A DNA stretch of 64,000 nt from Rusavskia elegans (Eukaryota > Ascomycota > Lecanoromycetes > Teloschistales > Teloschistaceae). Below, piece by piece: positions 2,859 to 27,156 of this stretch. The notes below the pieces were generated by a model, which saw only the letters and a program-made list of their open reading frames with translations, ran no database searches and was not told the origin of the DNA. The position numbers and the translations under genes are program-made. Every line of letters begins with the position of its first letter. Position 1 is the first letter of the stretch. Where the stretch lies: the NCBI GenBank assembly GCA_011316305.1, contig SAUG01000033.1, forward strand, positions 124,001 to 188,000, in the 5' to 3' direction.

Positions 2859-3248
2859 TGTTACGTCCACGATTCCACGGAGAAACTTTAGAAAATTAAC
2901 CAATTAAACGAGACTAATTATCTATAGTCGTCTATAGCTATTATAGCCGACCTTTATAATAAAAATTTTTAACGGATAATTATCTATCGGTACTATCGGC
3001 TACTTTTATTATATATTTTTCTTACTATTTCTATTAAATAGCTTCTTTTATTAGTCGTTAATATGATTATTAAATATTTTCAGTTATTTTCTTTTTAATT
3101 ACTTCTATAACGAAAATACTTTTATAGCTATATAGAATTAGTTATAATAATCTATATTAGAATTCTTTTACTATTTAATAGTTCGGATAATATTTATAGC
3201 TATAGCTAGATTTAAATATAACGTTTTCTAATATATAGAAATATTATA
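2859..3248 (+). repeat. 5' LTR of element C
   Basis: Begins TGTTACGTCC and ends with a degraded form of GGGACGTTACA. It is about 20 bp shorter than the 3' copy. The motif TATCGGTACTATCGGCTAC is shared with the LTRs of element B, marking one LTR subtype. Confidence 0.75.
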
Positions 3249-3721
3249 TTTTAAAAACTCCGGAAAATAAATAAAAATCGAATTTTTATTTAACAAATGT
3301 TACTCGGATAATCTATAGATATACTAGTTAATTCGGAAATTTCGAAAAATATTATATCGAAAAACTATATAAAAAGATTTGATATTTCTTTAATTAAAAA
3401 AACGGAATTTTATTTTATAGAAACTATTAATAAAATAGATTTTATTAAAATCTAGTTTTAGACTAATCTTTTTTAGATATAAAATAATAGATATAAAAGA
3501 AAAATTATTTTTAATATTATAAAAATATAAAGAAAATTATATTTAGAAATTCTATAATTTATAAAATAGAATCTAAAAATTAAATAGATATCGATATAAA
3601 TCAAAATAGAAAGCTATCTATTTAATATATCTAAAAGGTTAGTCGGAATATAAAGAATTTATAATATTTTTATCCGGAAATAGTAGACTAAAAAGAAATT
3701 AGCTACTATAAATAAACTTCT
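3249..3721 (+). pseudogene. Retropepsin part of pol, element C
   Basis: RIP-mutated 5' portion of pol, collinear with the minus-strand start of A2 pol (11893 downward). In the A2 copy the frame reads EALVD followed by a decayed active-site region and then KTEPYFIGTINKIGYIRVKY, as in Ty3/Gypsy retropepsins. Many TAA/TAG codons stand for Gln or Trp. It is interrupted at 3722 by X1 and resumes at 16862. Confidence 0.6.
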
Positions 3722-4147
3722 ATTTAATTATTTGTTTTGGTTTTGATATCCGGTAAATCAATGGTTCGGTAAACAAATCAAGCGTTAGTATACCAGTATT
3801 AAATATACGGTAATAGAATTTATATTCTAGTTTAAATAACGTAAATAACGGTTCTATAGAATTTTAATTTAAATTTACTTAGTAATATAATATATTTTTC
3901 TACCGATAATTTAACGTAGAAATTTTTATAAATAAATATACCTCGCAGTTATCGTTTCTTCTTCTTTTACTAGTAATATAAACCTTTCGTAAGTACTATA
4001 ATTTACTAAAATCTTTTACGTACGTATATATTCTCGTAATAGCTATACCGCAGCTAAACTAGACAATAGTATCTTTATCTATACTAATTATGTCTACTTA
4101 TACGGTCGTCGACTATTTTATTATAACTAGAGTAACCTATTCCGACT

Positions 4148-4557
4148 TATAACGTCCCTGTATATTAGAAGGCGTTACGTTCGAGTCTAGCTATAGCCGT
4201 AGACGTAGTCCGAGCTATTAAATAGTAAGGAAGTTCTAGTATAGATTATTATAACTAATCCTATATACCCGTAGAGGTACGGTTATAATATTATAAGATA
4301 TCTTTATTATATAGTAATTAAAAAGAGAATAGTAGAAATATATTTAATAATTATATTAATAACTAATAAAAGAAACTATCTATAGAAGTAATAAATAATA
4401 TATATAGTAAAAATAGCTATAAAAGCCGATAGGTAGCTATCTACTAAAAGTTCCGTTTAAAAAAGCGGCTATATCGACTATAGATAGCTATAGATAATTA
4501 GGTTCGTTTATTTAACTAATCTTTTTATAGAATTTTTATAGAGTCGCGGATATAATA
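4148..4557 (-). repeat. LTR of A1 (3' in sense)
   Basis: 410 bp. Starts TATAACGTCCCTG (consensus TGTAACGTCCCTG with RIP change) and ends GGATATAATA. The ends are an inverted repeat TGTAACGTCC/GGACGTAACA in less mutated copies. Confidence 0.8.
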
Positions 4558-7077
4558 TAGCTCCTTTTATATTATTTTTTACCTAGCGTATAATCTTTCT
4601 ATAAGGTATAAAAAAGAGTATTTTTTTTTTTTTTCTATTCTATTTTTCGATATCTTTATTATACGTTTTTAGCGAGGAAACCGGTTAAAATCCTTTTATT
4701 ATATTTAATTAAAAGAAATTATAATACCTTTTTTTTATTTTTTATATACCTATAATCTTTTAAAAGAATATAAAGTCGAGATTAGTAGTAATATTTATAG
4801 TAAATATACTCGGGTTTAGAAATTATATAATTTTCTAATATCTAATACTACCTATATATTAATTCTTTATTTTTTTTACTTTATTAACTTTTATAGGAAA
4901 ACGTTTTAAAAATAAAAAGAATAAATTCCGTTCTAATATTACTAATATTTTTAATAAATATTCTAAGGCTTATTATTATATCGAGTTTTTCTTTAATTTT
5001 AAAAAAGAAATTCGTAATAAATATTTAGCCTAAAAGTCGGATTTTCGCCGGCTTTTTAGTAAATAAAAGTATTTTATTATTTATTATCGCGCTTTAAATA
5101 AATATAAAAGTAATTTTATCTTTTAGGAATAATATATATTATTTCGGCTTAATAAATTTAATAATCCGGTTATATTTTACTTTTTTATTAGTTTTATACT
5201 AGCCGCGTAAAAGGCTTTTATTAAGTTAATATCTAGTTTTAATTCGGATAATTTAGATTAATTTTTAAAAGATTTTAATTTCTTTTAATCTATAGAAAGT
5301 ATAGGTATTTAAAGAAAGTCTAGTTAAAAGTTTCTTTATCTTTACTTTTATAACTAGTTTATATATCTATATTATAAGTTATTTTCGGTTTTTTTAATAG
5401 TTTTACTAAATTTTATTTTTTAGTAACTATTTTATTCTATAATAATAAGGACGGATACTAATCGAACTCTTTATTTCTAGATTATATACTAAATACTAGG
5501 TCTAGTATTTCTTTATTCTAGTTTATTTAGTTTAGTTTATAGTATTTAATTCTATCTATAGCTTTAATTATATTCTAGTATATTTTCTTAATATAGTTTA
5601 TCTAAAGCTATTAAATTATTTTTCTACTTTTATTATATTTTTTAGTAAATTATTAGAGGAGATAGTAATACTCTTTCTAAATCTTTATATTCTAGATTTC
5701 TCCGCCTTTTTTAAAGCTTTTATCTAATTTTATAATATTATCGTAATTTATTACTAAAACGGCGTCTATTTCTTTATATAAAAGATTTTTATAGACTAAT
5801 AAATAAATTATTTATAGTTCTATTTTCTTACCTATAGTACTTTTTTCTATTAGTTTTTCTAAAATCGATATTTTCTATTTATTTCCTAGGATAATATAAT
5901 TCCTTTAACTTTTAATAATAGTAAAACTTATCGTTCTAATTAATCTATTTTTTTATTTAACTTTAATATCGAGGATTCTATTATCTTTTATTATTTATTT
6001 ATAAAGATATCCTTTAATTTTATTATAGAATCCTTTTATAACTTTATTATCTTCCTTTCTATTAACTAGAGCTATTATTAGTTAACTTCCGATTTTAATT
6101 TTAAGTACTATTATAAGAGGTTTCTCGGTTTTATATAGTTTAAAATCGATTATTAGTTTTATTCTCTATACTTTTTTTAGTTTTTTAAAATAATATCCTA
6201 TTTCTACTTTATTTAATAGGTAGATAGAATAAGTATTATTATAGTAGACTAACTAGCTTTTTACTATATATTTATAGAGTAATTCTTTTATTACTTTAAA
6301 AAGGTTTTTAGTTATTTTAATTATTTTTTTAATTAGGTAATTTCTTTTAAGGTATCCTATTTTTTTATATAAATAATAAGCTTTAATTTTTAATCCTTTA
6401 GTTTTAGTAGTATTAAGCTCTATCGGATTTCCTTTAGACTTTCTTTTAGCGGGTCCTATTTTACTAAACGCCTGTTTATTTAAATATATTTTATACTACC
6501 TAGTATCGATCTTTATTATAAGTTTAATAAAATCTATTAATAAATCTAGTTTTTTAATTACTATTATAGCTTTTTTAACTTTTATTTAAAATTTTTTATA
6601 GAAGTAGACTTTTAGAGCTAAGTCTTCCTAGTCTATTTTATAAGCTAATATTCTAAATTAAATAGCGTAGGTAACTATCGATTTCTATTATTTTAGAACT
6701 ATTAATCTCTTTTCTATTATTCTATTCTTATTATTATCTCCGAAGGCTTTTTTTATAGCTATAATAAAATTACCGAAGGTATAGAAAATCTATAATATTT
6801 TATTTTCTTTCTATCCTTTTAGATTATTAAGATAATCTTCTATTCGAAGCTATACTTAATTAAAGGTAGCTCTTTCTAGATATAATATTATAAATAGAAT
6901 CTTAACTACTTTATTTAGAAACTAGTTTATATATAATACGAAGTAGATACTTATCTAAATAATTTATAACTTTAAAGATTCTTTATTTTCTTTATAGATA
7001 TTTAGTATTACTGCTTTAATAGTATCGCTTTAATCTATAGATCGGGATAATAAAATTAATATAATTAATTATTAAAA
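4558..7077 (-). pseudogene. gag region of A1, RIP-mutated
   Basis: Minus-strand gag collinear with 24234-26746. Stops are frequent and mostly at former CAA/CAG/TGG codons. The plus strand also keeps moderately open stretches near 4880-5280, whose meaning is unclear. Confidence 0.55.
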
Positions 7078-7487
7078 TATAATATCCCTATATATTAGAA
7101 GGTATTATATTTAAACCTAGCTATAGCCGTAAACGTAGTCCGAGCTATTAAATAGTAAGAAAGTTCTAGTATAAATTATCGTAACTAATTTTATATACCC
7201 GTAGAGGTATAGTTATAATATTATAAAGTATCTTTATTATATAATAATTAAAAAGAGAATAATAGAAATATATTTAATAATTATATTAATAACTAACGAA
7301 AGAAACTATCTATAGAAATAATAAGCGATATATATAGTAAAAGTAGCTATAAAAGCCGATAGATAGCTATCTACTAAAAGTCCAGTCTAAAAGGATAGCT
7401 ATATCGACTATAGGCGGCTATAGATAATTAGGCTCGTTTATTTAACTAATCTCTCTATAGAACCTCTGTGGAATCGCGGACGTAATA
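7078..7487 (-). repeat. LTR of A1 (5' in sense)
   Basis: 410 bp, same length as its partner. Ends GGACGTAATA at 7487, followed by TSD CGACT. Confidence 0.8.
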
Positions 7488-7570
7488 CGACTTTTATAAA
7501 GATTTCCTTTTTACCGCTTTTAAAACGCGCTATCCGATCTTTTTATCTCTTTTTAATCTAATCGACCGGG

Positions 7571-7983
7571 TGTAACGTCCCTGTATATCAAAGGGTGTTA
7601 CGTTCGAGCCTAGCTATAGCCGTAGGCGTAGTCCGAACTATTAAATAGTAAAGGAGTCCTAATATAGTATATCGCGACTAATCCTATATAGCCGTAAAGG
7701 TACGGTTAAAATATTACGAGGTATTTTCGTTATATAGATAATTATAAAGAGAATATATAAGAGTATTTAATAATTATATTAATAACTAACGAAAAAAGCT
7801 ATCTAATAGAAATAAAGGAACGATATATATAATAAAGATAGCCGATAGTACCGATAGATAACCGTTCCGTTAAAACTCTATTAAAAGGGTCGGCTATAGC
7901 GGCTATAGGCGGCTATAGATAATTAGCGTCGTTTAGCTAACTAATTTTTTAGAATATATCTATAGAATCGTAGATACAATATA
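7571..7983 (-). repeat. LTR of element B (3' in sense)
   Basis: Begins TGTAACGTCC with intact termini and ends GATACAATA. It pairs with 14926-15336. Confidence 0.75.
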
Positions 7984-8333
7984 GTTTTCTCTATATCGTT
8001 TTTTATCTAGCGTTTTCTATATATAAGATTTATAAAACCTATCTTTCCTTTTTTCTATTTTCTTTTTTTAATATTTTTATTATACGTTCTCGAAGAGGTA
8101 ATTAATTAAAATCTTTCTATCGGATTTAATTAAAAGATATTATTAGATCTTTTTTTTATAGCCTTTATATTTATAATATTTTAAAAAAATATAAAATTAA
8201 AGTAGGTAGTAATATTTATAGCGAGTATATTTATTTTATTTATACGATTATTTCTATTTAGAAATTTTATAATCTTTTAATTTCTAATATTATTTATAAA
8301 GTCGTTTCTATTTTTATATTTTCTCTAAATACT

Positions 8334-8743
8334 TGTAACGTCCCTGTATATTAGAAGGCGTTACGTTCGAGCCTAGCTACAGCCGTAGACGTAGTCCGAG
8401 CTACTAAATAGTAAGGGAATCCTAGTATAAATTATTATAACTAATCCTATATACCCGCAGAAGTATAGTTATAATATTATAAGGTATTTTCGTTATAAAG
8501 TAATTAAGAAGAGAATAGTAGAGACGTATTTAATAATTATATTAATAACTAATAAAAGAAACTATTTATAGGAGTAACGAGCGATATATATAATAAAAAT
8601 AGCTATAAAGGCCGACAGGTAACCGTCTATTAAAAGTCCTATTAGAAAGGATAGCTATATCGGCTATAGGCGGCTATAAATAATTAGGCTTATTTATCTA
8701 ACTAATTTTTCTATAGAATCTCTATAGAGTCGCGGACGTAATA
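8334..8743 (-). repeat. LTR of A2 (3' in sense)
   Basis: 410 bp. Starts TGTAACGTCC at 8334 and ends GGACGTAATA at 8743. Less mutated than most copies. Confidence 0.8.
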
Positions 8744-11700
8744 TAGCCCCCTTTATATCGCTTTTCTAAAGTTTTTTAAGGCTTCCTAGATATATTTAAA
8801 GTACTTTCTAGGTTCCTAGGTATTTTTTTTATCGGGGAACCCTTTCTATTTTACTAGGAATTCGTTAGTTTCCTTTCTTTCGTTTAAAATTTTCTTAACT
8901 TCGTATTTTTCTCGCTTTTAATAGTACTAATATTTTATTAACGGAATACGATCCGGTACTTTTTTTAGTAATCTAATATAAAATTTAGAGAAAATTCCTA
9001 TTATAGAAGGTTTTAGATATACTATTATCTTTCGAATATCCTAAACTTTAAAAGCTCCTATATATAGCTTATCCAGTTTTCTGTCTATTAAGTTTTTTAT
9101 TATAAGTAAAATCTTATCCTTTTTATTAATATTATAATATTTTCTTATTTTATCTAACCTTTATTTAACTCTTTCTTTTACTATTTAAATCCTTATTTTT
9201 ACTTTATTCTAGTTATTTTTTATCCTATTAATAAAAGATTATACTGCTAGGTTCTTTATATTTAAATATATTTCTCTTCGAATACTCTTACTATAGAGTA
9301 ATTTATTAGGCGTTATTCGGATATCTTCGTTATATAAAGAGTTAATTACTATCTAGGCTATCGGAAAAAGTTAAACCTAATTTTCTCTTTTATCTAAATA
9401 ATAGATCTTTAGGTAAATTTCTAGTATTTAATTTATTCTTTCCGTTTATCTATTAGTCTATAGGTAGAAAGATATTAATATTATTTATTCCGCTCCTACT
9501 ACTTATATTAAGCCTTTTATAAAGTTTAAAATAAATAGCTTATCTCTATCTAAGATAATCTTTTCCGCGATTCTATTTTCGTAGAATACTGTCTATAGTA
9601 ATAGAAAAGCTAACTGCTCTACTATTATAGTTATTTTATATAGTATAAATCTTACGTATTTCGTAAATCCGTTAATAATTATTACTATTATACTATATAG
9701 GATTTATATATACGAGTCGACTAATTCTAGTAACCCTGTAATAAAGTCTAATACGATCTATTAGTACGGTATATCTGGCGTCTACGTCGGTTAATATTTT
9801 TCTACCGGCCCTTAATAGCTTTTCTTTACTATTATATAATCTAGGTAATTTCGAATAAATTCTTCGATATATTTTTTAAATACTGGTATATTAGTATTTT
9901 CTTAAATTCTTTTTAGTATTTTAATAATATTCTAATATCCAGCCGTCTTCGGATCGTACGCTTATCTAATTATATCGTTAATTTCTTTTAAAACTTCTAT
10001 CCTTTTAAATATATTTCCGACTTTTTTTAGTAGGAATCTAGATATTTTTTTAGCAGCTTCGTAATCTGCTCTTCGGCTTAATATATCTATAACTATATTA
10101 TCTATATCTTTAATATACCTGATTTCGAAATTATAATAGGTTATTTCTTCTACCTATTTTATTTATCGTTAGTTTAATTCTTTATCTACTAATAGTAATA
10201 GTAGGTTCTTATAGTCTATATATACTACTACTTTATAATTAGTTCCGCTTATATAAATTTTCTAGTATACGAGGTTTACTATAATTACTAGTATTTCCTT
10301 ATCTATAGTTATATAGTTAACCTCTGCCGGAGTTAATTTCCTTAAATAGTATCTAAATAGTTTCCCGTTCTAGGAAATATATAACCCTATTACTCTATCC
10401 AAAGCGTCTATATAAAAGATAATCTATTTTTTTAGGTCGAAAATCGCCAGAGCTTCTTTAGATATAAAATTCTACTTAAATTTTTTAAATATTTCGTTCT
10501 AGATACGTATCTACTAGAAAGGTACGTTATTTTATAATAAATCAGTAAATAGAATAGTTTTTTTTATATAGCCTCCTATTATATTCTAATAGAAACCTAT
10601 AAATCCTAAAAAGTTTTAAATATCTTTTTTATTTTTTAGGACTGGCTATTTTTATATTATCTATAGTTTATTCGCCTCTATAATAATACTTTCTGGTTTT
10701 ATTACGTATCCGAAAAACGTAACTTCTTATTTATAGAATTCTAATTTTTCTTTTTTAATTTTAAAGTTATATTTTCTAAACCTTTATAATATTTAATAAA
10801 TATACTATATATATTCTTCTTTTATTTCTAAAAAGATTAGTATATCGTCTATATAGACTATAATAAAGATATTAAGATAGTTATATAATACTTTATTAAC
10901 TGCGCGTTATAGGATCGCCGGTACGTTTATTAATCTAAAGGATATAACCAGGTATTCGAAAAATCTATATTTAGTTTTAAACGCGGTTTTCTATTTATTT
11001 CTATATTTAATCTATAATAGGTTAAATATATCTTTTAAATTAAGTTTTATAAAAAACTTAGCTCTTCCGATTTTATTTTTTAGGTCTATAAGAAGCGGAA
11101 GTAAATATTTATCTTTTTAAATTACTATATTAAGTCTTCTAAAATCGATATAAAGTTAAAGATTACTATTTTTCTTCGGGATAAATATAACCGGTTATCT
11201 TATTTTTAATTTAGAGTATTATATATATTTTCTTTTAAAATTATAATCGATATATTATTTTAATACTTTCGATTATTTATTATTTAATCTATAGATTAGC
11301 CTAGCTTTTAATTTTTCCGGCTCTATTATAATAATTTTATAGTCTTCCTAGATATAAGCCGGTAAAGGTAGTTTTCTTTCCGGTTCCTTTAATATATCCT
11401 AGAATTTTTTAAAAAGTTATAGAATTTTATTTATAGTAGTTAATTTTCCTTTAGTCTACTATATCCGAATAAAGGTTTTATATACTTTTTATATCTCGGC
11501 TATCCTTTTAGGTATATTAAAAAAATAGTTTCTTATTTTTATTTATATCGTTTTTTAAACGATTTCTAAATTCTATAATATAAACTATAGAATACCTAGA
11601 TAAATATCCCTTTATATTTTTATAATATCGAAAATAATCCTTTTTTTATATCTATTATTTTATATCTATAGGGGTTTAATCTAATATTTAACTCTAATAT

Positions 11701-11893
11701 ACCCTATTTTATTAATAGTTCCTATAAAGTAAGGTTCTGTTTTCCTAATTAAAGGGACGCTAAACCTTTTTATATAATCTTTTAATATAATATTCTAAAT
11801 AGCTTTTAAATCGACTAAGGCTTCTATAGATTATCTAAATAATATTAGTTAGATAAAAATCCGATTTTTATCTATTTTCCGGAGTCGTTAAAA
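8744..11893 (-). pseudogene. pol (protease-RT-RNase H-integrase) of A2, RIP-mutated
   Basis: A Ty3/Gypsy-type pol can be read on the minus strand. A retropepsin-like start lies near 11893 (EALVD, then VPL and KTEPYFIGTINKIGYIRVKY). Reverse transcriptase spans about 11250-10780 with the catalytic motif YIDD (VYIDDILIF). RNase H and integrase should follow toward 8744, although I could not read their catalytic residues with certainty through the stops. The frame is interrupted by TAA/TAG/TGA, mostly at former Gln and Trp codons. Non-functional as it stands. Confidence 0.65.
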
Positions 11894-12303
11894 TATAACG
11901 TCCCTATATATTAGAAGGCGTTATACTCGAGTCTAGCTATAGCTATAGATATAGTCCGAGCTACTAAATAGTAAAAGAATCCTAGTATAAATTATTATAA
12001 CTAATCCTATATACCCGTAGAGGTACGGTTATAATATTATAAGGTATCTTTATTACGAAGTAATTAAGAAGAGAATAGTAGAAATATATTTAATAATTAT
12101 ATTAATAACTAACGAGAGAAACTATCTATAGGAATAATAAGCGATATATATAGTAAAAGTAGCTATAAAAGCTAATAGATAGATATCTACTAAAAGTCCT
12201 ATTAGAAAGGGCGGCTATATCGGCTATAGGCGGCTATAGATAATTAGGCTCGCTTACCTGACTAATCCCTCTATAGAACCTCTATAGAGTCGCGGACGTA
12301 ATA
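11894..12303 (-). repeat. LTR of A2 (5' in sense)
   Basis: 410 bp, identical in length to its partner and followed by TSD ATACT. Confidence 0.8.
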
Positions 12304-14925
12304 ATACTAATATCTGCAGAAAAGTATTTTAAAAATAAATAAAATAAGTTCCGGTCTAATATTAGGAATGTCTTTAATAAGTATATTAAAATACGACGCT
12401 GTATCGAATCTTTTCTCGATTCTAAAAAGGAAATTCGCAATAAACGCTTTACTTAAAAATCGAATCTTCGTCGATTTTTTAGGAAGTAAAAGTATTTTAT
12501 TACTTATTATCGCGCTTTAGATAAATATAAAAGTAATTTTATTATTTAGAAGCAGCGCGTATTATTTCGTTTTAATAAATTTAATAATCTAGTTATATTC
12601 TACTCTTCTATAGGTTCTACGCTAGCTATATAAAAGGTATTTATTAAATCTATTCCGGTTTTTAATTTAATTAATTTAGATTAATTCCTAAAGAATTTTA
12701 ATTTCTTTTAACCTTTAGATCTAGAAAGCGTATAAAAGAATATCTAGTTAAAGATTCCTTTATAGTATATTTATCTATTCTAATTTTAAGTATTAATATT
12801 ATAAATTACGTCCGGGTTTTCGGAAATTTCCGCTAACTTTTATTTTTTAACGATTATTTTATTTTAAAAGGATAAAGTTAGAAACTATTCGTCCTTTAAT
12901 TATATATTAAATATAGGGTCCGGTATATTATTATTTAAATATTTTTCTAGTTCGGGTATAGAATTATAGTTAACCTTTTCTATTTTTTTAATAACGTTTC
13001 GATAGATTTTCTTAACATCTTCTATCTATAGTTTTTTAATTAACTTCTATATTTTATTATATTTAAAAGCTAATTATATTAGTAGGTAGTAGTATTCTTT
13101 CCAGATTTTTATTTTCCAGACTTCGTCTTTTTATTTAAAAAGGATATTAACTTTTTCAATTTATTCGTAGTTTATATTTAATCCGATATTTAATTCTTTA
13201 TATAAAAGGTTTTTTTATATAAGAGAATATATTATTTATAGTTCTAGTTTTCTTCTAACCGTACTTTCTTATACTAGTATTTCTAAAATTGATTTTTTCT
13301 ATTCTTTTCCTAGGATAATATACTATCTAGAGCTTTTAATTACTATAAAGTTAGAAACTCTAATAAATCTATTTTTTATTTTAACTTTAATATTTATAAT
13401 TCTACTATTTTACTAAAGGTATTTCTAAATATATCCTTTAATCTAATTATATAATCTTTTTATAATTTTATTTTCCTCTTTTCTATTTATAAAAGCTATT
13501 ATCTTATAACTTCAGATTTTAATTTTAAAAGTTATTATAAAAAGTTTTTCCGTTTTATATAGTTTAAATTCTACTACTAGTTTTTTCCCGCTTTTCTAGA
13601 TTTTATAGAGTATTATTCTAACCCCTTTTTATCTAATAGATAAATAAGGTATTTATTATTATAGCAGGCTATCTAACTTTTAGTTATATATTTTTTAGTT
13701 TTTTTTTCTAGATAATTTCTCTATTATCTTAAACTAGTATTTAGTTATTTCTATTATCTTTTTAATTAGATAATTTTTTTTAAAGTATTCTATCTTTCCG
13801 TATAAATAATAAACTTTAGTTCGCGATCCTTTAGTCTCGGTAGTATCGAGCTCTATTAAATTTCTGTTACGTTCGAGACTCTACAGGAATTCTATAGAAG
13901 GATTAGTCAGGCAAGCGAGCCTAATTATCTATAGCCGCCTATAGCCGATATAGCCGCCCTTCCGGATAGGACTCTTAGTAGACGGCTACCTATCGGCCTT
14001 TATAGCTACTTTTACTATATATATCGCTCTCTACTCCTATAGATAGTTTCTCTCGTTAGTCGTTAATATAATTATTAAATATATCTCTATTATTCGCTTC
14101 TTAATTACCTTATAATAAAGATACCTTATAATATCGTAACCGTACTTCTATAGGTATATAGGATTAGTTACGATAACCTACGCTAGGATTCCTTTACTAT
14201 TTAGTAGCTCGGACTACGTCCACGGCTATAGTTAGGCTCGAGCGTAACGCCCTCTGATATACAGAGACGTTACAATTTCCTTTAGGCTATCTTTTAAAAT
14301 ATTCTATTTTACTAAACTCCTATTTATTAATATATTATATATACTATCTAGTATTAATTTTTATCGCTAGTTTAATTAGATCTACTAGCGAGTCGGGTTT
14401 TTTAATTAATACTATAGTTTTTTTAATTCTACTACTAAATTCTTTAAAAAAATAGGCTTTTAAAACTAAATCCTTCTAGTCTATCTTATAAGCTAATATT
14501 TTAAACTAAATAATATAGATAGCTACCGACTTCTACTATCTTAGAACTATTAGTTTTTTTATTATTATTCTATTTTTATTATTATTTCCGAAGGTTTTTT
14601 TAATAGCTATAATTAAATTATCGAAATAATAAAATATTTAAAATATTTCTTTTTTTCTTTATCTTTTAGAATTATAGAAATAGTCTTCTATATAGGACTA
14701 GACCTAATTAAAGATTATTCCTTCTAAATAGGTTATTATAAATAAAATCCTAACTATTTTATTTAGAAACTGGTTTATATATAATATAAAGTAGATATTT
14801 ATTTAAATAAACTAGAGTTTTAAAAATCCTCTATCTCTTTTATAGATATTTAATATTACTATTTTAATAGTATCGTTTCGTTCTATAGAATAGGATAACG
14901 AGACCGATATAGTAAATTATTAAAA
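12304..14925 (-). pseudogene. gag region of element B, RIP-mutated and interrupted
   Basis: Collinear with A1 and A3 interiors, for example TTTTAATAATTTACTATATC next to the LTR on the minus strand. It is cut by the solo LTR 13865-14274 and by A2; the remaining ~350 bp of the interior lies at 7984-8333. No pol motif was seen. Confidence 0.5.
13865..14274 (+). repeat. Solo LTR S1
   Basis: A single 410 bp LTR (TGTTACG...GACGTTACA) with perfect TSD ATTTC (13860-13864 and 14275-14279). The equivalent place in A1 (near 6427) is the uninterrupted GATTTCCTTTAGAC, confirming the empty site. Internal sequence was lost by LTR-LTR recombination. Confidence 0.85.
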
Positions 14926-15336
14926 TATAACGTCCCTATATATTAAAGAGCGTTATATTTAATTCTAGCTATAGCTATAAATATAGTCCGAACTATTAAA
15001 TAGTAAAAAAATTCTAATATAGGTTATCGTAACTAATTCTATATAGCTATAAAAGTATAGTCGTAATATTATGAAATATCTTCGTTATATAGGTAGTTAA
15101 AAAGAGAATATATAAAGATATTTAATAATCCTATTAATAATTAACGAAAGAAGTTATCTAATAGAAATAAAGGAGTAATATATATAATAAAAGTAGCCGA
15201 TAGTACCGATAGATAGCTATTCTACTAAGATTTTATTAGAAAGATCGGCTATAGCGGCTATAGGCGGCTATAGATAATTAGCGTCGTTTAGTCAATCAAT
15301 CTTCCAGAGTACTTCTGTAGAATCGTAGACGTAATA
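14926..15336 (-). repeat. LTR of element B (5' in sense)
   Basis: 411 bp. Ends AGACGTAATA and is followed by TCGGG, the RIP-altered TSD. Confidence 0.75.
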
Positions 15337-15639
15337 TCGGGTAAAGCTTCTGGCTGTAGTAGCTAGCGTACTAGCAGGCGATCCTATAACTAGCGACCTT
15401 TTTAAAGCTACGCGGGCTAAAAAGTATTTTAACAATTTAGTAGAACGTTTAGATACGGGTTATACGATAAATATAGCCGAAGCGACGGACGTAAATAATT
15501 ACTTCGTAATATAGCAGATGGATATAGCGGAAATATTAGAAGCTGATAATTATATATAACGTCGAGGAAGAAATATATAGTATTTAAATTGGAACGAAGA
15601 CTGCGAGTAACGGAGTTATATTTATATAGTAGAGGATTC

Positions 15640-16647
15640 CCCCTTATAGGGCCTGTGTCCGGGGTTATAATTAAGTTATTATATATATACGTTTTATCAC
15701 CGTAGTTTTTATACGGTAACAACAGTTATTGCTTGTACAGCAAAGAATTTTCGCAGTCAAAAGTTAACTAAGGTTTACAGCGGTAATTGATCGTTTTTAT
15801 TTCATTATATCCTCTATTTGATTACTATTCCTCTCCTATCCAGGATTCCCTTATACCATTTCGAAATACGTACGATTATAAGCTACTAATATAGCCTCCA
15901 GGACTACCTACTAGGCGGTAATACTATCTTTTATCTTTATTATTTTATCCTCGTCTACGGTCGTATCCGAATCTAGATAGCCTGCTAACCTATCTAGATA
16001 TTCGATAACTGCTAGTTTAACTACTAGTTTAATAGCTAGCTTAGATTCCTACTTAAATTCTAGTAGGATAAAGGTTCCTACTAGAAATCTAATATAGTTA
16101 CTAAAGCTATATAGCTCCGGCGGATTCGGAATACGAGGCTTTAATATTATATTTAGAACTACCGGATTTTAGGATTCGAAGTCCGTTATAGTAGACGGAC
16201 TAATAAAGACTCGGTCGACGTAATCGAATAGCTCGAATTCGGCGGTTTTAAGCTCTATTTCTTTAAATTAGAAAGATATAATCGTGGTTATAGTATTAGT
16301 AGAGGTTCTATATATATCAGCCTGCAGCCTAGACTATTACGGAAGATACGTACGTTAGATACGATAGTAGATACTAGTAAAAAAAGACGAAGAAGAAGCG
16401 ACTGTAAGGTATATATATATACGAAAATTCTGCTACGTTATATTTTAAGTAAACTATAGAAGTTTATATTATAAATATATTACGGAATAGATTAGAATTA
16501 ATTTTATATAATTTTTTAATTTAAATTAATTAGACTGGAATACTAGTTTTTATACCGTATATCTAACGCTAGCGTACTAATACTGAAGTAAATTACTTAC
16601 GGAACCGACGGTTAACCGGATACCAAAAAAACAAATAAAACAATAAA
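15640..16647 (+). mobile_element. Y1: ~1 kb retroposon-like unit
   Basis: Flanked by a perfect 14 bp direct repeat ATAGTAGAGGATTC (15626-15639 and 16648-16661). Starts CCCCTTATAGGGCC, which contains a short hairpin, and ends in an A-rich tail (ACCAAAAAAACAAATAAAAC). A long A-rich-tailed TSD unit suggests target-primed insertion (LINE/SINE-like). Against that, the best reading frame lies on the minus strand, with FKEIELKTAEFELFDYVDRV and NPVVLNIILKPRIPNP conserved in Y2 apart from RIP stops. The product is not recognised. Confidence 0.55.
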
Positions 16648-16861
16648 ATAGTAGAGGATTCGTAATCGAATAAAAAAAGAAATAGTCAAATAGAAGTAAT
16701 TAACTGCGCTATAAACTTTACCTGACGAATATACCTTTAGCTATGAAAATTTCTTTATACGTAAAATATAACAATCGTTGCCGTATATAACGTTGATAGA
16801 ATATATATATATATATATATAAAAACTCAATATAATTTTAAATAGAAGCTTTTCAAAAAGG

Positions 16862-19545
16862 AAATAAAATTCTATAACTATTTTAGAAATTTTAAAACGT
16901 ATTAAAAAAACCGGAAAAAAGATTATCTTTATTAATTTATATCTAGAAAAACTATAAAATTATTAGAATAAATTCGAAAAAGTTAAAATCTAGGCTAATT
17001 TAAAGATTAAAAAATAATTAGTTAAGAATATTATAATAATATATCGACTATAACTTTAAAAAAATATATACGATATTTTAAATTTAAAATAAAATAATCG
17101 GTAATATTTATTCTAAAAAAAAATAGAAATTTTAGATTTTATATCGATTTTAGACGGATTAAATACTATAATATAGAAAGATAAATATTTTTTACCCCTT
17201 TTAATAGATTTGAAAAATAGGATAGAAAAAGCTAAATTTTTTACGAAATTAAATTTAAAGGATACCTTTAATCTATTAAAAAAAAAATAAAAAAAAAATA
17301 GAAAATAGTATTTAAAATAAATTATAAACTATTAAAATTTTTAGTAATATCTTTCGGATTAATAAATACGCCTACGATTTTATAACGCGTAGTTAATAAA
17401 GTATTATACGACTACTTTAATATTATTATTATAATCTATATAGATAACGTATTAATATAATCCGAAATAAATAACTAATATAAATAATATATTTACTAAA
17501 TATTATAAAAGTTCCGGGAATATAATTTTAAAGTTAAAAACAAAAATAGAATTTTTTAAAAAAGATATTATATTTTTAAAATATATAATTAATCTAGTAA
17601 ATACTATTATAAAAATAATAAAGCTATAAAAAATACGAGAATAACCGGTATCTAAAAATAAAAAAGATATATAAAATTTTCTAGAAATTATAGAATTTTA
17701 CTAAAATATAATAGAAAGATATATAAAGAAAACTATTTCTTTAATAAATATATTATAAAACGATACTATATTTTAATAAATAAAAACCGAAAATAAAGTA
17801 TTTAAATAACTTAAATAAAATTTTATAAATAATAACATTTTAGAAATTTTCGATTTAAATAAATAGATAATATTTTATATAAATATATCGAATAGAACTT
17901 TAGATTTTTATATAATATAAAAAGGTAAGCTTTTAGAATACTATTCTAGAAAATTAATACTATCGAAAATTAATTATATAATAACGGATAAAAAAATATT
18001 AGTAATCGTTATAAATTTTATATACTAGAAGATATATATAAACGGGATATTTAAAAAAAATAATAGTCTATATAGACTATAAAAATCTTTTATCGCTATT
18101 AATTGATAAAGAATTTAACTAAAGATATATAAAATAGACTAAAAAAATTACTTACTACAACTTTGAAATACGATATAATAAAGAAATAGATAATATAGTT
18201 ACCGATATTCTAAATCGAAAAGCAGATTACGAAACTATAGAAAAAATAAATCGACTACTATTAAAAAGAAATAGAGTAGTTCTAGAAAAGATAGAAATAT
18301 TAGAAAAAATTAATAATATAATTCGATTGATATATAATCTAAAAACGGCAGACTATTAAAATATTTAAACGAATTTAGAAAAAAACTAATATACCGGTTT
18401 TTAAAAAATATATTAAAGAGTATGTAAAAAATTACTCTAAATACGCTCTATTAAAAAAAAATAAATAGAAACCGATTAGTAAATTATATCCGTTCTAGAA
18501 ACCAGAATATTAATACTAGTAAATTATAATAGACTTTATAATAGAGTTACTAGAATCGTCGGAATCGATCGATTTATATATATAAATATTATATAATACA
18601 ATAGTAATAGTAGTAGATAGATTTATAAAATATATCAGGTTTTTATTTTATAAAATGATAATAATAGTAGAACAGTTTAGCTTTTTATTATTAAAGATAG
18701 TTTTCTACGAGAATAGTATTATAGAAAAAACTATATTAGATAGAGATAGAATTTTCGTCTCTAACTTTATAAAAAGATTAATCTAGATAGTTAGAATAAA
18801 ATAAATTATATTAATTTTATTCTATTTATAGACGGATAGATAAAGAGAAAGAATAAATTAAATATTAGAATTTTACTTTAGAATCTACTATTCCGAGGAA
18901 AAAGAAAACTAGATTAAACTTTTCTAAATAATATAAATAGCTATTAATTTATTATATAATAAAGATATTCGGATAATATCCGATAAACTTTTATATAGTA
19001 AAACTTTTAGATAAGAAATTATTATAGATATAAAAAATCCAGCGGTATAAACGTTTATTAATAAAATAAAAAATAATTAAAATAAAGCCAAGACGAAAAT
19101 ATAGTAAACGAAAGCTAAAGTTTAAAAAAAAGTAAATAAATCTAGAAGATAGTATAATATTTCGAAATAAAATAAAATACTATTATCGATAAAAAATCTA
19201 ATAGATAGAAAACTTAATAAACTATATATCAAAACCTTCGAGATATAGAATATTAAAGATATAATAGTATCGCTACAGTTGCTAGTAATAGAAATTTTCC
19301 CGAGATTCTATATTACTTTTCTAAAGAAAACGCCTGATAGTATACTATTCGCGAAAGACTAGTATTATTAAAAGCGAGAAAAATACGAAATTAAATATAT
19401 TATTAATAAAAATAAAGAAATAGACGAGTTTTTAATTAAATAGAAAGGGTTTCCAGACAAGAAAAAAACGTAGAAATTAAGAAAATATTTAAAGAATATC
19501 TAAAAGGCTATACGAAAATTTAGAAAATCGCTATAAAAAGAACTA
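16862..19545 (+). pseudogene. RT to integrase part of pol, element C
   Basis: Continues the pol begun at 3249. Reverse transcriptase is seen around 17000-17470 (VISFGLINTPTIL, then VIYIDNVLI, with N where the second D of YIDD is expected, a G-to-A change). Integrase-like sequence extends to about 19500, and the 3' LTR follows after ATCGCTATAAAAAGAACTA. RIP is severe. Confidence 0.65.
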
Positions 19546-19956
19546 TATTATATCTATAATTCTATAGAAGAATTCTAAAAAGTTAGTTAGTTAAACAAAA
19601 CTAATTATCTATAGCCGTCTATAGCCGCTATAACCGATTTTTATAATAGAATCTTTTAGTAGATAGCTATCTATCGGTACTATCGGCTACTTTTACTATA
19701 TATATTATTTACTAATTTTATTAAATAGCTTTTTTTATTCGTTATTAATATAATTATTAAATATCTTTAGTTATTTTCTTTTTAATTACTTCTATAATAA
19801 AGATATCTCGTAATATAGTAACTTTATTTTTATAGCTATACGAGACTAGTTATAATAATCTACGCTAGAATTCCTTTACTATTTAGTAGCTCGGATTACG
19901 TCTACGGCTGTAACTAGACTCGAACGTAACGCCTTCTGATATATAGGGACGTTACA
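19546..19956 (+). repeat. 3' LTR of element C
   Basis: 411 bp. Starts as a RIP-altered TGTTACG and ends GGGACGTTACA, followed by TSD CGCGG. Confidence 0.8.
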
Positions 19957-20467: not shown

Positions 20468-21555
20468 CTTTTATAGGACCCCTGTCCGGAGTTATAATTG
20501 AGTTATTATATATATACGTTTTATTACCGTAGTTTTTATACGGCAATAATAGTTGTTATTTATATAGTAAAGAATTTTCGCAGTCAAAAGTTAACTAAAG
20601 TTTATAGCGTTGATTGTTTTTATTCTATTATATCCTCCATTTGATTACTATTCCTCCTCTATACTCCAGGAATAAATATCGCTCTATATATACGGAAGAG
20701 CGAGCGATCTTCTAGTACGTAGCTTTATCGATTCCCTTATACTACTTCGAAATACATACGATTATAAACTATTAATATAGCTTCTAGAACTACCTACTAG
20801 GCGGTAATACTATCTTTTATCTTTATTATTTTATCCTCGTCTATAGTCGTATCCGAATCTAGACGGTCTACTAATTTATTTAGATATTCGACGACTATTA
20901 GTTTATCTATTAGTTTAACGGCTAGCTTAGATTCCTGCTCGAATTCTAGTAGGATAAGAGCTCCTACTAGAAATCTAATACAGTCGCTAAAACTATATAG
21001 TTCCGGTAGATTTAGAATATAAAGCTTTAGTATCGTATTTAGGACTACCGGATCCTAGAATTCGAAATCCGTTATAGTAGACGGACTAGCGAGAACTCGG
21101 TCGACGTAATCGAATAGCTCGAATTCGGCGGTTTTAAATTCTATTTCTTTAAATTAGAAAGATATAATCGTAGTTTATTAGTAGAAGTTCTATATATATT
21201 AGACTACAGCCTGGACTATTACGGAAAATACGTACGTTAGATATAATAGTATAAATTAAGTCAGTCCGTAGTTGTTACAGGTACTAGTAAAAGAAGATAA
21301 AAAAGAAGCGACTATAAGGTATATATATATACGAAAATTCTACTACGTTATATTTACTAAATAAACTATAGGAATTTATACTATAAACGTATTACGGAAT
21401 AGATTAGAGTTAATTTTATATAGTTTTTTAGTTTAAATTAATTAGACTAGGGTACTAGTTCTTATACCGTATATCTAACGCTAGCGTACTAATATTAAAG
21501 TAAATTGCTTACGGAACCGACGGTTAATCGGGTACCAAAAAAACAAATAAAATAA
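20468..21555 (+). mobile_element. Y2: second copy of the Y unit
   Basis: Flanked by a perfect 15 bp direct repeat TAATAAATATCTTTT (20453-20467 and 21556-21570). Aligns with Y1 along its length, with a ~60 bp segment near 20665-20730 and a ~25 bp segment near 21255 absent from Y1. The same A-rich end (CCAAAAAAACAAATAAAATAA) and the same minus-strand reading frame are present. Confidence 0.6.
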
Positions 21556-21884
21556 TAATAAATATCTTTTTTTTAATATCCGTTTAGAATTTTCTATTTT
21601 CATTTTCGCTTTTATAGTCTTTTTATCTATTTTTTAATAGTTTCTAGAATTTCGTATTCTTTTTTACGTTTTTATTTATCGTTTGATTATAATATCTTTT
21701 ATCGAATTTAAAATTTTAGTTTTAAATCTTTTATATAATTTTCGATACCTTTTTAAATTTTATACAGCGCTGCTAGAATTAGCGCTACTACTAAAGTTAG
21801 CGCTACTATTAGAAAAAAATATTATTCGAAAGATAAAATTTTAAAATATATATATTATTATCTTTAAAATATATAAAATAGTAC
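21556..21884. other. AT-rich flank between Y2 and E
   Basis: RIP-like DNA that would join directly to 33132 if element E were removed. Nothing further is recognised. Confidence 0.5.
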
Positions 21885-22131
21885 TAGTATTATTATAAAT
21901 CATTTGAGCTGCCTGGAATTTATATAGAGTTCAGTGGATATAGAAGCACTGGCCGATAGTACCGGCTGACTAATACGCTGACTAAGCCCCGTTAACCGCG
22001 GCTTATTAACCCTGCGGGAATTATTACCTAATTAGGCCTAACGTTCAGCTTTATTCGCTTATTTATAGAGGAGCTTTCTACCTATATATAAATATTAAGC
22101 TATTATTATTATCTTAAATCGATCTATAATA
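21885..22131 (+). repeat. 5' LTR of element E
   Basis: About 247 bp. Contains TGACTAATACGCTGACTAAG and CCTAATTAGGCCTAACG. The exact left edge is inferred from similarity to 32879-33126. Confidence 0.7.
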
Positions 22132-22949
22132 ATTAGTAGTAATAAAAGATTTATTTATACGTACTATATAATATATATATAGCGTTTATAAATACTAATT
22201 CCCGTTTATAAATATTAATAGAACTAGTAATATTATCCGTATTTTTAGAGATACTAACTATTTTAATTAAGTATATTTTATTAGCAGTATTTACTAAATA
22301 ACTATCGTTCCTTACTAGTTATACTTTATATATTTAGATACGATAGGAATAAACCGGCTTATTAATTAGACTTTAATTAATTATAATAGCGATAGACGAG
22401 CTACCTCTATTTTTCGATAATAGTACTATCTTTTTCGGGTACCAGCTCGTCGAATTTATAGATAGAACCGGCTTTAGATATACTACTAATTAGTACTAGA
22501 ATATACTAGATTCTTTAAACTTCGTATATAATAATTATAATAATTTTAGGCCTCCTAGAACCGAAGCAGATAACGCTATAGGCGCTAAAATAAAATTATC
22601 CTTCCGGCTATCCCGATCGCCTAGATAGCCCGATAAATAGTTAGATAGCGGGGCTACAGCGTAAACTGCTATTAAATATTTTAAAGAAAGTACTATAAAG
22701 TTCCGGAACGACCCTATATATATATAAGCTATTATAAATTATTAAATCTCTATTAAAAGTAAAAAAAAGGAAGATATAGTCGATAAAGCCCTAGCGGACC
22801 TTTTTACTTTATCTAAATCGGATATAATCCGGAAACTAAATATAACGCGAAGCTATAGTTCTAATCCTATAGTAATATAATTCCTCGAGAAATTAGAGAA
22901 ATAGAATATTATAATCTAGATAGAGCTTATAGAATTTCGCTAATAAAGC

Positions 22950-23823: not shown

Positions 23824-24233
23824 TATTACGTCCGCGATTCTATAAAGGTTCTATAGAAAGATTAGTTAAGTAAACGAGCCTAATTATCTATAGCCGCCTA
23901 TAGCCGATATAGCCGCCTTTTTAGACAGGATTTTTAATAGATAGCTATCTATCGGCTTTTACGGCTATTTTTACTATATATATCGCTTATTACTTCTATA
24001 GATAATTTCTCTTATTAGTTATTAATATAATTATTAAATATATTTCTACTATTTTCTTTTTAATTATTTTATAATAAAGATACTTCGTAATATTATAACC
24101 GTACCTTTACGGATATATAGGATTAATTATAATAACCTATACTAGGATTCTTTTACTATTTAATAGCTCGGACTATATCTATAGCTATAGCTAGGCTTAA
24201 ATATAATACCTTCTAATATATAGAGATATTATA
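23824..24233 (+). repeat. 5' LTR of A3
   Basis: 410 bp. Starts TATTACGTCCGCG and ends GAGATATTATA. Confidence 0.8.
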
Positions 24234-26746
24234 TTTTAATAACTTACTATATTAGTTTTATTATTCCTACCTATAGATCGAAGCGATACTATTAAAGTAG
24301 TAATATTAAATATCTATAAAGGAAATAAAGAATCTTTAAAACTATAAATTATTTAGATAAATATCTACTTTATATTATATATAAACTAGTTTTTAAATAA
24401 AGTAGTTAAAGTTTTATTTATAATATTATATCTAGGAGAGGCTGCTTTTAATTAAATATAGCCTCGAATAGAAAATTATCTCGATAACCTAGAAAGATAG
24501 AAAGAAAATAAAATATTATAAATCTTTTATACCTTCGGTAATTTTATTATAGCTATAAAAGAAGCCTTCGGAAATAATAATAAAAATAGAGTAATAAAAA
24601 GGAAACTAATAGTTCTAAAATAGTAAAAATCGGTAGTTACTTATATTATTTAATTTAGAATATTAGCTTATAAAATAGACTAGGAAGATTTAGTCTTAAA
24701 AATCTATTTCTATAAAAGATTCTAGATAAAAGTTAAAGAAATTATAATAGTAATTAAAAAACTAGACTTATTAGTAGATCTTATTAAACTTATAATAAGA
24801 ATTAATACCAGGTAGTATAAAATATACTTAGATAAATAGATATTTAGTAAAATAGAACCTATTAAAAGAAAGTCTAAAAAAGACCCGATAGAATTCGATA
24901 TTACTAAAATTAAAAGATCGAAAATTAAAGTTTATTATTTATATAGAAAAATAGGATACTTTAAAAGAGATTATCTAATTAAAGAAATAACTAAAATAAT
25001 TAAAAACTTTTTTAAAATAATAAAAAAACTATTCTATAAATATATAGTAAGAAGCTGGTTAGCCTACTATAATAATATTTACTCTATTTACCTATCGGAT
25101 AAAATAGGGATAGGATATTATTTTAAAGAACTAAAAAAAGTATAGGAAATAAAGCTAATAATCGATTTTAAACTATATAAAACTAAGAAACCCTTTATAA
25201 TAGCGCTTAAAATTAAAATCGGAAGTTAACTAAAAATAGCTCTAGTTAATAGAAAGGAAGATAATAAAATTATAAAAGGATTCTATAATAAAATTAAAGG
25301 ATATTTCTATAGATAAATAATAAAAAATAATAGAATTTTTAATATCGAAGTTAAAATAAAAAATAGATTAATTAGAATAATAAGTTTTACTATTATTAAA
25401 AGTTAAAAGAGTTATATTATTCTAGAAAATAAATAGAAAATATTAATTTTAGAAAAACTAATAGAAAAAAGTACTATAAGTAAGAAAATAGAACTATAAA
25501 TAATTTACTTATTAGCCTATAAAAACTTTTTATATAAAGAAATAGACGCTGTTTTAATAATAAATTATAACGATATTATAGAATTAGATAAAAGCTTTAA
25601 AAAAAGTAAAAAAGTCTAGAATATAAAGATTTAAAAAGAATATTACTATTTTTTCTAATAACTTGTTAAAAAATATAATAAAAGTAGAAAAATAATTTAA
25701 TAGCTTTAAATAAATTATATTAAAAAAATATACTAGAATATAATTAAAACTATAAATAGAATCGAATACTATAAACTAAATCAAGTAAACTAGAATAAAG
25801 AAATACTAAACCTAGTATTTAGTATATAATCTAGGAATAAAGAATTCGATTAGTATCTATCTTTATTATTATAGAATAAAATAGTTACTAAAAAATAAAA
25901 TTTAGTAAAGCTATTAAAAAAACCTGAGATAATTTATAATATAAATATATAAACTAGTTATAAAGGTAAAAATAAAAAAGTTTTTAACTAGACTTTTTTT
26001 AGATACCTACACTTTCTATAGGTTAAAAGAAGTTAAAATCTTTTAAAAATTAATCTAAATTATCTAAACTAAAACTAGATATTAATTTAATAAAAGCCTT
26101 TTATACGGCTAGCGTAAAACTAATAAAAGAATAAAACGCGACCGGATTATTAAATTTATTAAACCGAAATAATATATATTATTCCTAAATAATAAAATTA
26201 CTTTTATATTTATCTAAAGCGCGATAATAAATAATAAAATATTTTTATTTACTAAAATACCGGCGAAGATCCGATTTCTAGGCTAAATATTTATTATAAA
26301 TTTCTTTTTTAGAATTAAAAAAGAATTTAATATAATAATAAACCTCGGAATATTTATTAAAAATACTAGTAATATTAGAATAGAATTTATTTTTTTTATT
26401 TTTAAAACGCTTTCCTATAAAAGTTAGTAAAGTAAAAGGAATAGAGAATTAATATATAGATAGTATTAGATATTAGAAAATCGTATAATTTCTAAGCCTA
26501 AATATATTTATTATAAATATTACTACTAACTTTAACTTTATATTCTTTTAAAGGATTATAAATATATAAAAAATAAAAAAAAAATATTATAACTTTTCTT
26601 AACTAAATATAATAAAAGGATTTTAACCGGTTTTTTTACCGAAAATATATAGTAAAGATATCGAAAGATAGAATAAAAAAAAAATACTTTTTTTATACCC
26701 CGTAGAGAAATTATATACTAGGTAAAAAGCGATATAGGAAGGGCTA
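24234..26746 (+). pseudogene. gag of A3 with decayed zinc knuckle
   Basis: With RIP stops skipped, the plus frame reads a Gag-like protein: FGNNNKNRVIKR about 24555-24600, IDWEDLVLKIYFYKRF, then VYYLYRKIGYFKRDYLIKE at about 24930-24985. The last stretch fits C-x2-C-x4-H-x4-C with the Cys and His codons turned to Tyr (TGC/TGT to TAC/TAT, CAC to TAC), all RIP-type changes. The remaining ~1.7 kb is an acidic, low-similarity C-terminal extension. No pol domain follows. Confidence 0.6.
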
Positions 26747-27156
26747 TATTATATCCGCGACTCTATAGAAGTTCTATAGAAAGATTAGTTAAATAAATAA
26801 ATCTAATTATCTATAGCTATCTATAGCCGATATAGCTATTTTTCTAAATAAAACTTTTAGTAAATAGCTACCTATCGGCTTTTACGGCTATTTTTACTAT
26901 ATATATCGCTTATTATTCCTATAGATAGTTTCTCTCGTTAGTTATTAATATAATTATTAAATACGTCTCTATTATTCTCTTTTTAATTATTTTATAATAA
27001 AGATACTTCGTAATATTATAACCGTACCTCTATAGGTATATAGAATTAATTATAATAACCTATACTAGGACTTCCTTACTATTTAATAGCTCGGACTACG
27101 TCTACGGCTATAGCTAGGCTCGAACGTAACGCCTTCTGATATACAGGGACGTTACA
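26747..27156 (+). repeat. 3' LTR of A3
   Basis: 410 bp. Ends GGGACGTTACA at 27156. Confidence 0.8.

What the first reader, a model, noticed from the sequence alone, without database searches (positions are those of the whole stretch)
2859..27156. A bipartite LTR retrotransposon family: gag-only and pol-only elements sharing one LTR and polypurine context
Three elements (A1 4148-7487, B 7571-15336, A3 23824-27156) have ~2.5 kb interiors with gag and no visible pol. Two others (C 2859-19956 and A2 8334-12303) have ~3.15 kb interiors that begin at the 5' LTR with a retropepsin-like segment and carry pol but no gag. All five have ~410 bp LTRs of the same family (TGTTACGTCCGCG...GGGACGTTACA) and the same purine-rich end before the 3' LTR (consensus near GATATAAAGGGGGCTA). 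C and A2 share the same interior start (TTTTAA..ACTCCGGAAAA), and the gag elements share theirs (TTTTAATAA). Each class occurs at different sites with different TSDs, so each has moved as a unit. This fits obligate trans-complementation between two half-genomes. Non-autonomous gag-only elements are known in plants (TR-GAG); a matched pol-only partner would be unusual.
Basis: partly seen in the sequence, partly recalled or inferred. Interest (0 to 1): 0.88.

Follow-up and report, generated by a model that had tools for sequence, protein, structure and literature searches.

The report
Retrotransposon split into two partner halves
In this fungus-like genome one family of jumping genes is split into two kinds of element, one carrying the particle gene (gag) and one the enzyme genes (pol), which share the same end sequences and seem to have needed each other to move, much like a virus with a divided genome.

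Summary
Confirmed, and genome-wide. The window's gag-only (A1, B, A3) and pol-only (A2, C) elements belong to two classes with one LTR family. Of 77 copies examined (39 gag, 38 pol), 75 have their class's start directly behind an LTR; 65 have matching target-site duplications, 46 exactly. Patterns count 439 LTR-gag and 177 LTR-pol junctions. The 100 pol starts listed, of 173, all follow an LTR directly. No gag-pol copy was seen. LTR differences that RIP mutation cannot make follow age, not class: young gag and young pol LTRs differ by 1.1%, young and old gag LTRs by 6.1%. Interiors diverged in step (10.6% and 9.8% transversions); both frames show third-position bias. Best reading: a two-part Ty3/chromovirus-type retrotransposon whose RNAs were co-packaged and exchanged LTRs. 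The interiors read are RIP-mutated relics, so mechanism is inferred. An extinct or unseen full-length helper, or Gag from another family, is not excluded. The relatives I found described are one-sided: Quinta/Cereba, Sabrina/WHAM/Wilma, Tos17, Athila.

The parts
2859..19956 (+). Element C: old-stratum pol-only element; LTRs 2859-3248 and 19546-19956; interior in two pieces, 3249-3723 (pol nt 1-475) and 16862-19545 (pol nt 462-3150), split by element X, which itself holds A1, B and a 1-kb repeat; TSD CGCGG
3249..3723 (+). 5' part of the RIP-mutated pol frame of C (leader, start-codon site, retropepsin part)
16862..19545 (+). rest of the RIP-mutated pol frame of C (RT, RNase H, integrase, chromodomain part)
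4148..7487 (-). Element A1: young gag-only element; LTRs 4148-4557 and 7078-7487; interior 4558-7077; TSD AGTCG
7571..15336 (-). Element B: old-stratum gag-only element; LTRs 7571-7981 and 14926-15336; interior pieces 7982-8328, 12304-13864 and 14275-14925; holds A2 and a solo LTR; TSD CCCGA/CCCGG
8334..12303 (-). Element A2: young pol-only element nested in B; LTRs 8334-8743 and 11894-12303; interior 8744-11893; TSD AGTAT
8759..11875 (-). RIP-mutated pol frame of A2 (PR-RT-RH-IN-chromodomain), beginning at the ATA codon 18 nt behind the 5' LTR where relatives have M
13865..14274 (+). solo LTR of the family inside B, flanks ATTTC/ATTTC
23824..27156 (+). Element A3: young gag-only element; LTRs 23824-24233 and 26747-27156; interior 24234-26746; TSD AGCGT/AGCGC
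31192..31601 (+). solo LTR of the family, flanks CTAGA on both sides

Best explanation
This is a two-part (bipartite) Ty3/Gypsy, chromovirus-type LTR retrotransposon. One element class carries gag and no pol (about 2.5 kb interior); the other carries pol and no gag (PR-RT-RH-IN-chromodomain, about 3.15 kb interior, probably with its own start codon 18 nt behind the 5' LTR). Both keep the same cis signals: the LTR, an 11-nt leader that can pair with the LTR motif AGTCGTTAA (a possible self-priming site of the Tf1 type), and about 20 nt with the polypurine tract before the 3' LTR. Shown: exclusive interiors and recurrent boundaries in the copies examined, separate insertions with target-site duplications, LTR variants shared across classes, parallel interior divergence, third-codon-position bias in both frames. 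Inferred: Gag from one class built the particle, Pol from the other acted in trans on both RNAs, mixed RNA pairs were co-packaged, and strand transfer between them kept swapping LTRs between classes. RIP then mutated the copies.
For: Structure: 39 of 39 gag copies and 36 of 38 pol copies have their class's leader and start directly behind an LTR; exact TSD in 23 of 39 and 23 of 38, a further 12 and 7 agree in purine/pyrimidine code. Counts: 439 LTR-gag and 177 LTR-pol junctions (up to 3 mismatches), 173 pol starts with no LTR in the pattern (up to 2), reversed-pattern controls 0; 100 of 100 listed pol starts are LTR-adjacent (80 by pattern, 5 read, 15). LTR sharing, only elements with matching TSD: the five commonest purine/pyrimidine haplotypes occur in both classes (gag/pol LTRs 17/13, 14/10, 6/13, 4/6, 2/4); 15 of 63 5' LTRs and 23 of 63 3' LTRs are identical in this code to one of the other class; nearest neighbours are of the other class in 0.49 and 0.45 of cases against 0.50 and 0.51 for shuffled labels; mean distances young gag-young pol 0.0109, young gag-old gag 0.0612, young pol-old pol 0.0499, old gag-old pol 0.0443. 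One intermediate LTR lineage is carried by 6 gag and 14 pol elements. B and C share 9 states that set them apart from young LTRs. Co-divergence: gag A1-B 0.1055, pol A2-C 0.0980 transversions per site. Selection: transversions by codon position gag nt 1-1410 32/25/64 (p 2e-5), pol 70/39/180 (p 1.5e-25). Relatives: P0042 (1040 aa, 11-kb contig) aligns from its M1 at interior nt 19 to nt ~3135 of 3150; 8 of 16 close database relatives start MNK(N/S)RIF at this site, the other 8 start further inside pol.
Against: No working copy was read, so packaging, trans action and strand transfer are untested. 73 of 173 pol starts were not checked one by one, and each DNA search scores only 40 candidates. 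On the tree of all 202 LTRs the class label changes 38 times against 55.8 (sd 4.5, minimum 43) for shuffled labels, so the classes are not fully mixed; that tree still holds a few LTRs that probably belong to inserted elements. 15 of 21 haplotypes are seen in one class only, mostly rare ones. B has 9 and C 3 further states of their own. 19 of the 36 best-scoring degenerate RVT_1 hits are not tied to a listed pol start; at least two of them are this family (the lists are cut at 100), but other RT families seem to exist and could have supplied Gag. Codon-position bias is absent in parts (gag nt 451-900 p 0.95, pol nt 301-600 p 0.85), and the test rests on one old-young pair per class. The relatives' contigs could not be read, so their LTRs and lack of gag are not shown.
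Confidence: 0.78

Rival explanations
1. Both classes are internal-deletion derivatives of one autonomous gag-pol element with this LTR; that helper moved both and is now extinct, unassembled or beyond the candidate limits.
For: A gag-only family moved by an autonomous partner is described in wheat (PMC11302176, passages). The DNA searches score only 40 candidates each, and 73 of 173 pol starts were not checked one by one.
Against: 100 of 100 checked pol starts are LTR-adjacent; 75 of 77 copies show their class's own start behind the LTR and the other two are explained by an inserted gag element; pol starts (173) do not exceed LTR-pol junctions (177). Both frames show third-position bias between two strata that are already split, and relatives start pol at the same place.
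Confidence: 0.13
2. The two classes are not partners: each borrows what it lacks from unrelated autonomous Ty3 families, and the shared LTR is only common descent.
For: Other RT families seem to exist in the genome. Tos17 of rice is a gag-less element whose helper is unknown (PMC3977881, passages).
Against: Common descent without exchange predicts two LTR clades; instead young gag LTRs are over five times closer to young pol LTRs than to old gag LTRs, and an intermediate lineage is also shared.
Confidence: 0.06
3. Shared LTR variants arose by gene conversion between inserted copies, so they say nothing about co-packaging.
For: Conversion between dispersed repeats is possible; 12 of 77 elements (5 of 65 with matching TSD) have 5' and 3' LTRs of different haplotype.
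Against: 60 of 65 elements with matching TSD keep the same 5' and 3' haplotype, as expected if both LTRs are made together at reverse transcription. This rival would not explain the exclusive interiors and leaves the bipartite reading intact.
Confidence: 0.1

Closest known systems
RLG_Quinta / RLG_Cereba of wheat (PMC11302176; abstract and passages seen)
   Same: A gag-only Gypsy family and a pol-bearing partner share PBS, LTR termini and PPT and are held to be complementary.
   Different: Cereba is described as autonomous, with all proteins needed, so the dependence is one-sided; parts of the LTRs are conserved. Here the pol partner has no gag and the LTRs behave as one pool.
RLG_Sabrina / RLG_WHAM / RLG_Wilma of wheat (PMC9744471; section 2.7 and passages seen)
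   Same: Elements with GAG and protease but no RT and INT, co-evolving with a pol-bearing partner.
   Different: Wilma is held to be autonomous, sequence homology between the families is minimal, and protease is on the gag side. Here protease begins the pol-only element.
Tos17 of rice (PMC3977881; abstract and passages seen)
   Same: Pol-bearing element with gag removed, able to move by using Gag in trans.
   Different: Copia superfamily; two copies in the reference genome; the helper is unknown and no matched gag-only partner is named in what I saw.
BARE-2 of barley (recalled; only its title was seen, in reference lists)
   Same: Gag-defective element dependent on another element's Gag.
   Different: Its helper BARE-1 is a complete gag-pol element (recalled).
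TR-GAG elements of plants (recalled; papers with the term were only listed)
   Same: Gag-only elements between terminal repeats.
   Different: I know of no matched pol-only class with the same LTR (recalled).
Athila families of Arabidopsis (PMC2410132; abstract and passages seen)
   Same: Pol-less families with gag under purifying selection, held to be moved in trans; recombination among families.
   Different: Four of eleven gag-defined families contain pol, so complete partners exist; no complementary gag-less class is named in what I saw.
Multipartite viruses (recalled)
   Same: Genome divided over separate nucleic acids that complement each other.
   Different: These are integrated genomic elements copied through RNA, with the same terminal repeats.

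Membership tests
LTR retrotransposon | two LTRs with TG..CA ends and target-site duplication | tested here: met
   TGTTAC..GTTACA ends, often mutated to TA..TA; 46 of 77 exact 5-bp TSDs, 19 more in purine/pyrimidine code, 12 without
Ty3/Gypsy | pol order PR-RT-RH-IN | tested here: met
   pieces of A2 match RVT_1, RNaseH, then H2C2 (below cut-off) in this order; PR only in relatives P0001 (below cut-off) and P0046
Chromovirus | chromodomain at the C-terminus of integrase | tested here: met
   A2 Chromo 23.5 bits, below the cut-off of 25.1; relative P0042 36.1 bits, above it
Autonomous LTR retrotransposon | gag and pol in one element | tested here: not met
   not seen in 77 copies, in the 24 of 30 older copies with a clear 5' LTR or at the 100 of 173 pol starts listed
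TR-GAG type gag-only element | LTRs with gag and no pol | tested here: met
   A1, A3, B: gag match, no pol match
Quinta/Cereba-type pair | the partner of the gag-only element is autonomous | tested here: not met
   no gag between LTR and pol in the copies checked
Tf1-type self-priming | PBS complementary to the 5' end of the transcript | tested here: inconclusive
   leader TTAACGACT is complementary to LTR AGTCGTTAA; RIP-tolerant motif in 152 of 153 young and 49 of 54 older LTRs near nt 193, but also in 153 of 2000 shuffles; exact in 73 of 154 LTRs against 7 of 5000 shuffles; transcript start unknown; Tf1 comparison recalled
Obligately bipartite element | neither class moves without the other | not testable with these tools
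   the interiors read are mutated; needs living relatives

The most novel reading that the evidence does not exclude
A reciprocally obligate, two-segment LTR retrotransposon: gag-only and pol-only half-genomes that replicate only together in mixed particles, shuffle LTRs by strand transfer between heterodimeric RNAs, set the Gag:Pol ratio by copy number (439:177 junctions) rather than by frameshift or readthrough, and have persisted as a pair through at least three LTR lineages here and in other fungi.
Probability: 0.5. Interest if true: 0.93.

Novelty: new variant of a known kind. Interest (0 to 1): 0.86.

Why it matters
The non-autonomous LTR elements I found described lean on a complete element, as parasites or at best helpers. 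Here no complete element was seen and both halves look selected, which would make this a divided genome in a retrotransposon. It would make testable how long a split element can persist, whether heterodimer packaging and strand transfer hold it together, and whether copy number replaces frameshifting in setting the Gag:Pol ratio. It also warns that repeat annotation may file such halves as two unrelated defective families.

Tried and rejected
Pfam, PHROGs, PDB and the large protein search missed the gag part (one Pfam hit to DUF5493 at E 0.037, below cut-off, was taken as chance); it was recovered only by comparison with Fusarium gag-pol proteins found through pol. A PDB search with the retropepsin piece found nothing. 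Retrotrans_gag (PF03732) in the genome rang nowhere, nor in the controls, so it says nothing. Two scans of viral contigs found no relatives of P0001 or P0002. A second ORF in the 3' kilobase of the gag element was not identified (six frames of A1, 0 families). Considered and rejected: composite elements sharing an LTR (65 of 77 copies have their own TSD); deletion debris with varied breakpoints; simple 5' truncation of pol (LTR and leader present at the starts checked). Ten paper searches showed me no described reciprocal gag-only/pol-only pair in the listings; most papers of subscription journals are not held.

Correction on checking: my first count took all 38 pol copies as having pol directly behind their own LTR; L028 and L033 do not, and the 3' LTR of L023 is probably not its own.

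Rows dropped: one search left seven LTRs out of the young comparison (both of B, both of C, three damaged); one search left out three damaged LTRs and older LTR ends scoring under 550; one search used 65 of 77 and 17 of 30 elements. Older pol copies: 20 of 46 rows were chosen (rows already skipped) and 10 of these fetched; older gag: 20 of 41 rows.
Full report
Observation. The window lies on contig C148 of a 44.16-Mb genome. From about 2 to 34 kb it is AT-rich (14-34% GC per kilobase) and mutated in the manner of RIP: in 30 pol loci (CA+TG)/(AC+GT) is 0.02-0.16 and the best frame on either strand holds 49 or more stops. Twelve LTRs of one family are present. Element C (pol) was split by a ~1-kb element X (segments 3686-4148, 7490-7569, 15349-15639 and 16648-16833 match 33575-34605). 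X was entered by A1 (gag), B (gag) and a 1-kb repeat; B was entered by A2 (pol) and a solo LTR. The nesting gives an order: C before B before A2, and A1 after X.

Domain content. A2 in pieces matches RT and RNase H above, and H2C2 and chromodomain below, Pfam's cut-offs. Relatives (P0001, P0042, P0046) support PR-RT-RH-IN-chromodomain. The gag part was found by homology to Fusarium gag-pol proteins. Cross-probing was exclusive, with A3 passing but not.

Genome-wide structure. A2's interior gave 44 rows, 34 spanning the whole query; A3's interior gave 53 rows, 38 spanning it. In all 30 pol loci an LTR lies directly before the matched pol piece; in 28 this is the start of pol or within 14 nt of it, in two (L028, L033) it is the LTR of a gag element lodged at pol nt 410 or 551. 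Of 77 copies, 39 of 39 gag and 36 of 38 pol show leader and start behind an LTR. Exact 5-bp duplications: 23 of 39 gag and 23 of 38 pol; 12 and 7 more agree when transitions are allowed; 4 and 8 do not. Older copies, found with C and B as queries, have the same boundaries: of 10 pol and 20 gag pairs of ends, 7 and 17 have a clear 5' LTR; 8 of 30 have exact and 9 purine/pyrimidine duplications. Pattern counts are 173 pol starts (up to 2 mismatches), 177 LTR-pol and 439 LTR-gag junctions (up to 3), controls 0. Of the 100 pol starts listed, 80 are in the listed junctions, 5 were read and 15 (LTR-end scores 99-128 against shuffled maxima of 28-37).

LTR history. RIP makes only transitions, so purine/pyrimidine code was used. 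The five commonest haplotypes occur in both classes, in all 77 elements and in the 65 with matching TSD. Nearest neighbours are of the other class in 0.46 of cases against 0.51 (sd 0.04) for shuffled labels, 67 of 500 shuffles at or below; with matching TSD only, 0.49 (176 of 500) for 5' and 0.45 (56 of 500) for 3' LTRs. Against full mixing: on a tree of 202 LTRs from 107 elements the label changes 38 times, shuffles 55.8 (sd 4.5, minimum 43). Distances follow age: young gag-young pol 0.0109, young gag-old gag 0.0612, young pol-old pol 0.0499, old gag-old pol 0.0443 (nearly the same). B and C share nine states that set them apart from young LTRs; nine more are B's alone and three C's alone. 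An intermediate lineage is in 6 gag and 14 pol elements, the latter mostly with interiors about 80% like A2. Two classes that parted before the old stratum and never exchanged LTRs should not look like this (inference).

Interiors. Transversions per site are 0.1055 (gag A1-B, 1535 sites) and 0.0980 (pol A2-C, 2673 sites). They fall on third codon positions in pol (70/39/180) and in gag nt 1-1410 (32/25/64), weakly in gag nt 1500-2513 (22/30/43, p 0.028); some windows show none, such as gag nt 451-900. As both strata are already split, selection seems to have acted on gag in pol-less and on pol in gag-less elements, unless a hidden full-length master existed.

Cis signals. Both classes share 11 nt after the 5' LTR and about 20 nt with the purine tract before the 3' LTR. 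The leader can pair with AGTCGTTAA inside the LTR; self-priming of the Tf1 kind is a suggestion only (Tf1 recalled). The codon 18 nt behind the LTR reads ATA in 36 of 36 pol copies, where relatives read M, so the pol class probably had its own start codon, lost to RIP.

Relatives elsewhere. P0042 spans almost exactly the pol-only interior, and 8 of 16 close database relatives begin at the same site. This suggests, without proving, that pol-only elements are not private to this genome.

Literature. What I saw describes one-sided pairs: Quinta/Cereba (PMC11302176, passages), Sabrina/WHAM/Wilma (PMC9744471, section 2.7 and passages), Tos17 (PMC3977881, passages), Athila (PMC2410132, passages). 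A survey of fungal LTR elements (PMC3248453, passages) says that gag is hard to identify with profiles. I saw no reciprocal pair in the listings of ten searches.

Verdict. The strongest remaining doubt is a vanished or unseen full-length helper.

Noticed in passing
33575-34605, and in pieces at 3686-4148, 7490-7569, 15349-15639, 16648-16833: A ~1-kb element X, inserted in C with pol nt 462-475 doubled (about 14 bp), a possible target-site duplication; type not determined.
   Followed up: partly
15644-16646 and 20471-21558: A ~1-kb repeat, 80% alike, one copy inside X; type not determined.
   Followed up: no
21885-22158 and 32879-33154: A ~275-bp direct repeat, about 85% alike.
   Followed up: no
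interior nt 1800-2100 of the gag-only element (A3 against B): Few transversions (11 in 300 nt) and a bias at another codon position than in gag; a further short ORF or a conserved RNA signal is possible.
   Followed up: partly
genome-wide: Other degenerate RT matches not tied to this family, and one RVT_1 match with an intact 847-aa frame (C209:918969-919742).
   Followed up: no
genome-wide: LTR-gag junctions outnumber LTR-pol junctions about 2.5 to 1, in the direction of the excess of Gag that a particle needs.
   Followed up: partly
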